A stretch of 41,540 bases of DNA. It comes from Acidobacteriota bacterium (lineage in GTDB: Bacteria; Acidobacteriota; Thermoanaerobaculia; Multivoradales; JAGPDF01). The stretch spans positions 50,001 to 91,540 of the forward strand of contig JACTMI010000018.1 of the NCBI GenBank assembly GCA_014584695.1, written 5' to 3'. The notes beneath the pieces were generated by a model. The model ran no database searches, was not told the DNA's origin, and saw nothing but the letters and a program-made list of their open reading frames with translations. Each line of letters opens with the position of its first letter. The first letter of the stretch is position 1. Shown piece after piece: positions 38,427-41,540 of this stretch. Both the position numbers and the translations under genes were made by a program.

Positions 38427-38792
38427 CTACGGTGCTCGGACCTGGCGGGAGCGCCGAGTTCTGAGCCAATGAATGGTTGATGCTAGGCCCGTCAGAAGGA
38501 CGATCCAGCCGGCGAAGTTCGAGATCAGAAAAGTTGCCAAGATCGAGGAGATGGCAGAGGGGGCAGCATCTGGAATCCAGAACTCCGGCTGACAATCGAG
38601 CAGCGCGCAAACCGAGATCGCGGGCGTGGCAAGGAGGCGGACATCTCCAAGCCGTGCACGGGCCTCGCTGGCAGCGAGTGTCCCATGGTCCGAAATAACG
38701 CGAAGTGCTGCCCAGTACGCGAGTGGTAAGACGGTGAAGAACAGGCTGGCCCAGGCAACCGCCGGCGTCAGCTTGATGTCTCGCAGTGACAT
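38427..38792 (-). CDS. Small membrane protein, candidate immunity protein for the RHS toxin
   Basis: The 121-residue product has two clear hydrophobic segments (about 11-33 and 81-108), a third weaker one (52-66) and a basic C-terminus. Its ATG shares a base with the RHS stop codon (TAATG), so it is translated right after the RHS tip. This placement is typical of immunity genes in polymorphic toxin systems. I do not recognise the family. A membrane location would mean the toxin is blocked at the inner membrane or in the periplasm. Base composition is lower in GC than the RHS core, like the toxin tip itself. Confidence 0.5.
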   Translation of the reverse strand: MSLRDIKLTPAVAWASLFFTVLPLAYWAALRVISDHGTLAASEARARLGDVRLLATPAISVCALLDCQPEFWIPDAAPSAISSILATFLISNFAGWIVLLTGLASTIHWLRTRRSRQVRAP

Positions 38793-41540
38793 TAGTGCTT
38801 CTCCCGAGTGAGTGGTGAGAAGGGTGGCTTGGCAAGCAACTCTCGATGCAGATTCTCGTAGCGCAGAGCGAACGAATCGGTGCTGCCTGGCTGAAGGGGA
38901 TTCGCTCCTGCAGCGAAGTAGCCGAAGGCGTGGCCGAGCTCGTGGACCACCGCGGTGCCGAGCGAGTATGGGAGCCCGACTTTGACTCCGGCGAAGGGAC
39001 CACTCGTCGGGGTGCCAGTCAATGCCATGCTTGTCACTTGGCTCGGATTGATCAAGATCTTGATCTTATTGGCATAGGTGGGGTCAGTCCTGGCACCCTG
39101 CCACTTGGCGAGATCGCGACTCGTGACCTCGAGTTCGACCCGCTCCTTGGCCGCGATGGCACTGCCAATCAGCCGAGCGGTGGGATTCTCCGATTTCGTG
39201 AGATCTACGTCGCCGCTGGAGAGGTGGGTCTCGGTAGTTGTCCATTTCAGGCCGAGGAGGGAGTGGGTGACCTCGACCTCCTCGAGTTGCAGCGTCGCGG
39301 TATCACCAGCCTCGACCAAGGCCTCCCGGAGGCCCTCCAGCCCCTTGTCTGAGGTGACAACATAGAGCCCCGTCGGATCCACGTACGCGAGCGGGTTGCT
39401 CAGGGCGTACGAATAGCGGTTCCAGAGCTGTGGCATCCGCTGCGCACGGCCGACCTGCAGGACCGGATCGACTGACAGAAATCTCCCGATCTGCGGGTTG
39501 TGCATCCGCGCGTGCATGTGGTCGAGGTCGTCGGCGGTGCTGGTCGGGTCGCCGAGGTCTCGTTCGTGGCCGGTGAACTTGTAGCGGATGAGGTTCTGGG
39601 TCGCGCTGGTCGCCTCTTCGCCGTAAGGGAAATAGGCGTGGAAGGCGACCTGCGCGCCGGCGTGGTCGGTCAGCAGCCGGGGGGTTCCCAGGTGGTCGAC
39701 GTGGAAGTGCGTCGTCTGGAGCGGGCCCTGCGACCTCAGCAGCGGACCGCCGGGGCCCCGGTGGACGTTGTCGCGCTCGACGACGCCCGTCGCCGTCGGC
39801 CGGTCGTAGACGAACTCCCGCAGCACTTGGTTGTCCAGCCCCCGCAGCGTCCAGCGGATCTTCTCGGCCCCGCCCACCTGCCAGGAGAGCAGACGCTCGT
39901 CCTGCGCCGTGTAGGCGTGGAGCCACTCCTGGTTGCTGGTTTCCACCCGCCAGACCTCGCCGAAGGGGCCGAAGTCGTATTCGTTGCCATTCCATCGGTC
40001 GAGGTTCCCGGCCGCGTCGTAGTGAATCATCATCCCCAGCAGGCGATTCGTCGCCGGGTTCACCGGGATCTCCCGCCCCGGGTTACCCACCACCTCGATC
40101 AGGTTCCCGAACGGGTCATAAGCGAACTGCTGCACGCGCTCCGGCGGCGGCGGCGTTCCGCCCCAGGCCGAGGTGTCCCCGCTCTCGAAATCGTCCGCGA
40201 AGATCAGATCCAGCAGCCGCGGCCGCGCGCGCGCCGCGACGCTCACCCGCGACTCCGTCACCCGGCTCACCCGGTCGTACAGGTAGCTCGTCTCGCCGAT
40301 CTCCACCACGTTGCCCGAGCCGTCGAACCGGTAGGGGCCCGACGTCCAGTTGCCGGCGGCGGAAACCCCCGTCGTCCCGATCGACGCCGGGCGCAGCATC
40401 CCGTGCGGGTCCAGCCCGTGCGTCACCGTCACCCCGTTGCCGTGCTGCACCTGGGCGACCATCCCGTTCGGATGGTACGTCACGTTGCCGAACAGGATCC
40501 CGGAGGGTGTCCGTACCGTCGTCAGCCAGCCCTGCGAGAAGAGAAATTCGACCTCCGGGAAGGCCGCTCCGTCCAGGCACCCGCCCGCCTCGCAGTGCGG
40601 GTACTCCAGCAGGTCCACCACCCCGAGCGGCGTGTACTCGAAGCCCTGCGTCCACCGGTCCGTCGGCCCCGCGCCGTCGAGGTAGACCTCCGTCGTCCGG
40701 CGAGAGACGCGCCCGCCGCGCCCGAAGTGCTCGTAGATCTCACGCACCTGTGCCGTCACCGGCTGACCGGAGAGCAAGACGTGGTTGAAGCGGCTCGCCT
40801 CGACCAGCTGGCCCAGGCTCGGGCCCGGCGTCGGCGAGTAGAAGAACTCCTTCAGGGTCCGCGCGCCGCCGCCGGTCTCTTGCACCCGCGTCAGCCGCTC
40901 CGCCCGGTCGAAGTGGTAGGTGAGGTCGTGAGGCCCGTCGACCTTGCGCGTCGCGTGGCCGCGGGCGTCGAAGCCCGAGTAGGTGACCATCCCGTTGCCC
41001 GACTCACCCTTCTCCGGATGCTGCTCCGAAAGCAGCAAGCCCCGCTGGTCGTAAGTCCAGAAGCGATTCTGCGTCACCGTGCCCTGGCCGATCGGGGCCG
41101 CCGTCGACGCCTGTCGCAGGCGGTTGCCGACGTCGTAGCCGTAGGTCGTCGTCGCGGTCGCGCCGCCCGCGCCCGAGGGCTCCACGACCTCCCCCAGCCG
41201 TCCCTGCCGGTCGAAGCGCTCGATCGTCACCGACGGCACCTCGATTGCCCGCCCGGCCTCGCCGGCGATCGCGCCGACCCAGGAGCGGCGCAGCAGCTGG
41301 CGATTGCCTAGGTATTCGAGCTCGATGCGATGGTCGAAGCCGTCCGGTGGCGTGATGGTGGCCGGCCGGCCGAAGGGGTCGTAGCCCTCGAACAGCGTCC
41401 GCTGCGCGAGGTGGCCCCATTCCGAGATCGAGGCGCGCCAGCCGTTACCGTCGTAGCGCGTCTCGCGGGTCGACCAGACGCTCCCCCCGGGCATCCGGCG
41501 GGACTCCCGCCAGAGCCTGCCGAAGCCGTCGAGCTCGGAA
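38792..41540 (-). CDS. RHS-repeat polymorphic toxin with HExxH metallopeptidase-like tip (5' end beyond window)
   Basis: The open frame runs to the window edge (upstream codons read SELDGFGRLWRESRR), so the N-terminus is missing; about 915 residues are visible. YD/RHS repeats (YDGNGWRAS, GYDPFGRPATI, FAYDPFGNLIEV) lead into the core end HVDHLGTPRLLTDHAGA, RYKFTGHERDLG, RMHNPQIGRFLSVDP, and the junction RYSYALSNPLAYVDPTGLY at about 39362-39420. After DPTGL, a tip of about 190 residues carries VVHELGHAFGYF (HExxH at 38930-38944) and RYENLHRELL near the end, like zinc metallopeptidase toxin tips (M91/NleD-like). An IFADDFESGDTSAW motif lies mid-protein at about 40160-40214. The tip is less GC-rich than the core, suggesting exchange. 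Confidence 0.88.
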   Translation of the reverse strand, partial: SELDGFGRLWRESRRMPGGSVWSTRETRYDGNGWRASISEWGHLAQRTLFEGYDPFGRPATITPPDGFDHRIELEYLGNRQLLRRSWVGAIAGEAGRAIEVPSVTIERFDRQGRLGEVVEPSGAGGATATTTYGYDVGNRLRQASTAAPIGQGTVTQNRFWTYDQRGLLLSEQHPEKGESGNGMVTYSGFDARGHATRKVDGPHDLTYHFDRAERLTRVQETGGGARTLKEFFYSPTPGPSLGQLVEASRFNHVLLSGQPVTAQVREIYEHFGRGGRVSRRTTEVYLDGAGPTDRWTQGFEYTPLGVVDLLEYPHCEAGGCLDGAAFPEVEFLFSQGWLTTVRTPSGILFGNVTYHPNGMVAQVQHGNGVTVTHGLDPHGMLRPASIGTTGVSAAGNWTSGPYRFDGSGNVVEIGETSYLYDRVSRVTESRVSVAARARPRLLDLIFADDFESGDTSAWGGTPPPPERVQQFAYDPFGNLIEVVGNPGREIPVNPATNRLLGMMIHYDAAGNLDRWNGNEYDFGPFGEVWRVETSNQEWLHAYTAQDERLLSWQVGGAEKIRWTLRGLDNQVLREFVYDRPTATGVVERDNVHRGPGGPLLRSQGPLQTTHFHVDHLGTPRLLTDHAGAQVAFHAYFPYGEEATSATQNLIRYKFTGHERDLGDPTSTADDLDHMHARMHNPQIGRFLSVDPVLQVGRAQRMPQLWNRYSYALSNPLAYVDPTGLYVVTSDKGLEGLREALVEAGDTATLQLEEVEVTHSLLGLKWTTTETHLSSGDVDLTKSENPTARLIGSAIAAKERVELEVTSRDLAKWQGARTDPTYANKIKILINPSQVTSMALTGTPTSGPFAGVKVGLPYSLGTAVVHELGHAFGYFAAGANPLQPGSTDSFALRYENLHRELLAKPPFSPLTREKH

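What the first reader, a model, noticed from the sequence alone, without database searches (positions are those of the whole stretch)
38427..39380. RHS toxin tip with metallopeptidase motif coupled by TAATG to a small membrane protein
The RHS core ends at DPTGL. The variable tip (about 190 residues) has HELGH and a downstream ENLHREL block, so a zinc peptidase effector is likely. The next gene starts inside the RHS stop codon and encodes a multi-helix membrane protein I do not recognise. Immunity proteins to cytosolic peptidase toxins are usually soluble, so a membrane-bound one hints that the toxin acts at the membrane or in the periplasm, or that immunity works differently. Both genes differ in composition from the RHS core, as expected for an exchanged tip/immunity cassette.
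Basis: partly seen in the sequence, partly recalled or inferred. Interest (0 to 1): 0.66.

Follow-up and report, generated by a model that had tools for sequence, protein, structure and literature searches.

The report
RHS peptidase toxin with membrane immunity
A little-studied bacterium carries a swappable toxin tip that looks like a zinc protease, followed directly by a small membrane protein that probably protects the cell from it; the pairing recurs in a relative and fits a design already described in other bacteria, so it is a new member of a known kind rather than a new system.

Summary
The RHS core ends at DPTGL. A 190-residue tip with HELGH and YENLHREL follows. A 121-codon gene starts inside the RHS stop (TAATG). 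GC content and GC3 drop in both. The RHS gene is cut at its 5' end by the contig end, so its delivery route is unknown. One relative of the tip (about 42% identical) was found in the same order: an orphan tip with a broken link to its core, also followed by a small membrane protein of the same size and hydropathy. The tip's HExxH–EN–R pattern matches the M91/NleD-HopH1 profile better than 200 of 200 shuffles that kept VHELGHA, but no curated model calls it. M91-like proteins elsewhere in the phylum are followed by exported or anchored proteins in 13 of 13 readable loci. In the same genome a Tlde1-like tip also has an anchored neighbour, a nuclease-like tip does not. Best reading: an envelope-acting metallopeptidase toxin with an inner-membrane immunity protein. 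An RHS–M91 effector with a 110-residue transmembrane candidate immunity protein is already published (Salmonella Dublin), so this is a new member of a known kind. Catalysis, target and protection are inferred. AlphaFold gave no usable tip model.

The parts
39365..41539 (-). RHS core (725 residues, 5' part cut off by the contig end), ending NPLAYVDPTGL
   Evidence: RHS_repeat PF05593 E=3e-12; TIGR03696 E=2e-15 at residues 636-725; contig end
38792..39364 (-). Variable tip, 190 residues, predicted zinc metallopeptidase toxin
   Evidence: Only match in the own genome is itself; relative in G026; no curated family
38930..38944 (-). HELGH (predicted zinc-binding and catalytic motif)
   Evidence: read from the sequence; VHELGHA identical in the relative
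38837..38860 (-). YENLHREL, candidate third-ligand block, equivalent of the [DE]N of Tox-HopH1/M91
   Evidence: EN.HR.L identical in the relative; aligned to the M91 EN..R block
38427..38792 (-). 121-residue membrane protein, predicted cognate immunity protein, overlapping the RHS stop (TAATG)
   Evidence: hydropathy peaks at 12, 48, 81; three helices in a moderate-confidence model

Best explanation
This is an exchangeable RHS tip/immunity cassette. The tip is a zincin-type metallopeptidase resembling the M91 (NleD/HopH1-like) family and is most likely toxic in the envelope (periplasm or inner-membrane face) of rival bacteria. The small protein is its immunity protein, held in the inner membrane by two helices with both ends in the cytoplasm. 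Its middle stretch of about 50 residues would face the periplasm, where it would bind the peptidase or shield its target. Shown: gene order, stop/start overlap, compositional shift, recurrence of the pair in a relative, and profile similarity to M91. Inferred: catalysis, delivery, target, topology and protection.
For: Tip placed directly after the RHS core end, with lower GC3. A relative tip (E=2.8e-16, 42% identical over its C-terminal 100 residues) keeps VHELGHA, EN.HR.L and PF; it follows a frame-broken remnant of an RHS core end and is followed by GGAGG and a 122-residue membrane protein. The two small proteins have hydrophobic segments at 12/48/81 and 9/44/79 and align at score 47, reached by 14 of 2000 full shuffles and 35 of 2000 local shuffles. 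The annotated frame pair scores highest of 36. Tip profile against M91 domains from the phylum: hhalign probability 86.5, and 0 of 200 shuffles keeping VHELGHA reach it. In 13 of 13 readable M91 loci the next gene begins with a signal-peptide-like, lipobox or anchor segment. In the same genome a Tlde1-like tip is followed by an anchored HEAT-like protein, and a Tox-REase-7-like tip by a protein without such a segment. Charges favour N-in/C-in. A published parallel is an RHS-M91 protein with a 110-residue transmembrane candidate immunity protein (PMC8867033).
Against: No significant Pfam, NCBIfam, PHROGs or PDB sequence match for the tip or the small protein. The tip alone does not score above shuffles against the M91 profile HMM (3.5 bits, 70 of 500 shuffles as good), and shuffling only the part after HELGHA reaches the real hhalign score in 3 of 200. 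The AlphaFold tip model is not usable (pLDDT 43). The pair rests on two loci, and the relative's tip is decayed at its RHS junction. The small-protein similarity is only moderately above shuffles.
Confidence: 0.66

Rival explanations
1. The tip is a metallopeptidase toxin that works in the cytoplasm, and the membrane protein gives immunity by blocking entry at the inner membrane, as proposed for two-helix immunity proteins such as Imm-CdiI and Imm17.
For: Two-helix immunity proteins thought to block uptake are described (PMC3482391); the characterised M91 enzyme NleD acts in the cytosol of target cells (PMC9846239).
Against: M91-like proteins in this phylum pair with exported or anchored proteins, lipoproteins included, which suits action outside the cytoplasm.
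Confidence: 0.17
2. The HExxH tip is not a toxin against rivals but a processing or adhesion-related peptidase of the RHS protein, and the small membrane protein is an anchor or export helper.
For: Peptidase domains with releasing roles occur in polymorphic toxins (PMC3482391); RHS proteins in this class are poorly studied (no paper found).
Against: The position is the variable tip, with foreign-like composition and a decayed orphan cassette in a relative, as expected for toxin/immunity cassettes. RHS tip release in studied cases is by aspartyl self-cleavage inside the core (PMC8636562).
Confidence: 0.1
3. The small ORF is not a gene, or is an unrelated gene that happens to follow the RHS gene.
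For: Overlapping frames are open by chance here (302 codons in another frame); shuffle support is only about 1-2%.
Against: One-base overlap with the RHS stop, same place and size in the relative, that frame the best conserved, and matching hydropathy positions.
Confidence: 0.07

Closest known systems
Salmonella Dublin SPI-19 SED_RS06335/SED_RS06340 (PMC8867033)
   Same: RHS protein with a C-terminal HExxH M91-type tip, in a two-gene unit with a 110-residue transmembrane candidate immunity protein
   Different: That RHS has a PAAR domain and a type VI system and is annotated as M91; here the N-terminus is missing and the curated M91 model does not call the tip. The two small proteins were not compared by sequence.
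Tpe-Tpi metallopeptidase effector/immunity pairs (VgrG2b-PA0261, Tpe1-Tpi1; PMC6899460)
   Same: Zinc peptidase toxin with an envelope-placed immunity protein; Tpi1 sits in the inner membrane
   Different: Carried by VgrG or another gene rather than an RHS tip; the immunity protein is mostly a periplasmic domain; no sequence comparison with this pair was made
Tox-HopH1 / Peptidase M91 (PF14891) tips of polymorphic toxins (PMC3482391)
   Same: HExxH plus a later EN, tip position after RHS repeats
   Different: Below detection by the curated model; profile similarity only, from a two-row alignment
[quoted passage not shown]
   Same: Small, two main membrane helices
   Different: Imm17 has WxW and an Arg between its helices; there is no WxW here and no Pfam match

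Membership tests
RHS polymorphic toxin | RHS/YD repeats and RHS-associated core before a variable tip | tested here: met
   PF05593 and TIGR03696 hits; tip after DPTGL
RHS polymorphic toxin | Immunity gene directly downstream, exchanged with the tip | tested here: inconclusive
   Pair recurs once in a relative; protection not tested
RHS polymorphic toxin | Secretion-specific N-terminus (e.g. PAAR, signal peptide) | not testable with these tools
   Contig ends inside the gene
Peptidase M91 / Tox-HopH1 | HExxH with downstream [DE]N | tested here: met
   HELGH and EN, both kept in the relative; signature from PMC3482391
Peptidase M91 / Tox-HopH1 | Match to Pfam PF14891 | tested here: not met
   No PF14891 hit for the tip up to E=10; no PF14891 match in the own genome
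Peptidase M91 / Tox-HopH1 | Profile-profile similarity beyond the HExxH motif | tested here: inconclusive
   Probability 86.5, 0/200 shuffles, but 3/200 when only the part after HELGHA is shuffled
Peptidase M91 / Tox-HopH1 | Zincin fold | tested here: inconclusive
   AlphaFold pLDDT 43 with a two-row alignment
Imm17 two-helix immunity | Two TM helices with WxW and Arg between them | tested here: not met
   Sequence has no WxW; no Pfam match

The most novel reading that the evidence does not exclude
The tip is a new zincin toxin family, distinct from M91, that cuts an inner-membrane protein at the periplasmic side, and the two-helix protein protects by shielding or imitating that membrane target rather than by binding the toxin as a soluble inhibitor.
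Probability: 0.12. Interest if true: 0.55.

Novelty: new member of a known kind. Interest (0 to 1): 0.32.

Why it matters
It adds an uncharacterised tip/immunity pair from a little-studied class (Thermoanaerobaculia, inferred from the relative's public record). More generally, all 13 readable M91-like loci examined in this phylum have an exported or membrane-anchored next gene. That makes a simple prediction testable: these peptidase toxins act in the envelope, and the location of the immunity protein tells where a toxin acts.

Tried and rejected
Wider searches for tip relatives gave only G026: genome contigs, viral contigs (18), plasmids (19), 72 genomes of the order (29), 149 of the class (32) and 396 of the phylum (33). 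Weak hits L016 and L022 were checked and dropped: L016 lies antisense to an efflux-pump gene (35), and L022 is a short stand-alone protein with HELGH that looks like an archaemetzincin and has no RHS core (36). Searching P0002 alone gave only weak, scattered hits, the best E=6e-4 in G093, which I did not follow up (22). AlphaFold on the tip failed (52); the P0002 model (pLDDT 67, 53) was judged too weak for a fold search. PDB, PHROGs and PADLOC gave nothing. The exported neighbours of M91 proteins resemble BsuPI-type inhibitors by eye, but Pfam called no family (66).

Full report
What is there. The window is positions 50001-91540 of a 91,540-base contig, and the contig ends at the window's right edge. 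On the minus strand an RHS reading frame enters from that edge and runs to 38792 (915 codons seen). RHS repeats and the RHS-associated core are recognised; the core ends with NPLAYVDPTGL at 39365. The 190 residues after it hold HELGH and YENLHREL. The stop TAA shares a base with the ATG of a 121-codon gene. GC drops from about 0.70 to about 0.61, and GC3 from 0.92 to 0.73 and 0.67.

Is the small gene real. In this region another minus frame is open for 302 codons, so an open frame proves little. The stronger evidence is comparative. One relative of the tip was found among 197 related genomes, in a genome of the same order that is also public as a Thermoanaerobaculia genome bin. It keeps VHELGHA, GYFA.GA, EN.HR.L and PF. 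Just upstream, in another frame, lies a remnant of an RHS core end (DGWNLYAYTSGNPVN). Further upstream is an RHS end with another tip and a HEAT-repeat gene. I read this as a displaced orphan cassette. Directly after its tip come GGAGG and an ATG opening a 122-residue membrane protein. This protein and ours have hydrophobic segments at nearly the same positions (9/44/79 and 12/48/81) and align with score 47; 14 of 2000 full shuffles and 35 of 2000 hydropathy-keeping shuffles do as well. Among all 36 frame pairings, the annotated pair scores highest (z = 3.8; next 2.9). I take the two as a conserved pair, with moderate confidence.

What the tip is. No curated model calls it. I collected M91 (PF14891) domains from the order and phylum and compared profiles. 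The tip pair aligns to them over HExxH, the later EN..R and nearby residues with probability 86.5. None of 200 column shuffles that keep VHELGHA reach this, though 3 of 200 that shuffle only the part after HELGHA do. The published Tox-HopH1 signature, HExxH plus [DE]N (PMC3482391), is met. Because PF14891 itself does not match and the fold could not be predicted, I say it works like an M91 peptidase, and leave membership open.

Where it may act. In 13 of 13 M91 loci with a readable next gene, that gene starts with a hydrophobic export or anchor segment, often with a lipobox. Several of these loci are close relatives, and not all sit in RHS genes, so the independent count is nearer eight. Signal peptides were judged by hydropathy and by eye, not by a trained predictor. 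In the window's own genome, an RHS protein with a Tlde1 (L,D-transpeptidase-like) tip is followed by a membrane-anchored HEAT-like protein, whereas a tip just below the Tox-REase-7 cut-off is followed by a protein with no such segment. Zhang and colleagues noted that most immunity proteins are cytoplasmic, that two-helix ones exist, and that some immunity proteins of surface-acting L,D-peptidases are secreted or membrane-bound (PMC3482391). The small protein's charges put both ends inside, with its middle stretch of about 50 residues outside. The simplest model is an envelope-acting peptidase with an inner-membrane immunity protein.

How new. An RHS-M91 protein of Salmonella Dublin in a two-gene unit with a 110-residue transmembrane candidate immunity protein is already described (PMC8867033), and Tpi1 is an inner-membrane immunity protein of a periplasmic metallopeptidase (PMC6899460). 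The present pair is unnamed and rare in the collections searched, but the design is known. It is a new member of a known kind.

Limits. The pair rests on two loci; catalysis, target, delivery and protection are inferred.

Noticed in passing
L063 and L064 (own genome, contig C14, about 63-83 kb): Several RHS core ends with different tips, orphan cassettes, and an 1834-codon RHS frame with a Tlde1-like tip and an anchored HEAT-like neighbour: a polymorphic-toxin island in the same genome.
   Followed up: partly
L062 (own genome, contig C8, right end): A second RHS gene about 78% identical to the window's core also breaks at a contig end and is itself frame-broken before any tip; the repeat probably caused both assembly breaks.
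   Followed up: partly
window 40160-40201 (minus strand): The RHS core contains FADDFESGDTSAWG in the middle of the repeats, which I know from memory as a motif usually seen near protein C-termini; a close form is also in the C8 copy.
   Followed up: no
L024, L025, L026, L038, L044, L048 (genes after M91 proteins): Exported or lipoprotein neighbours of M91 proteins look by eye like BsuPI-type protease inhibitors, but Pfam called no family in those tested.
   Followed up: partly
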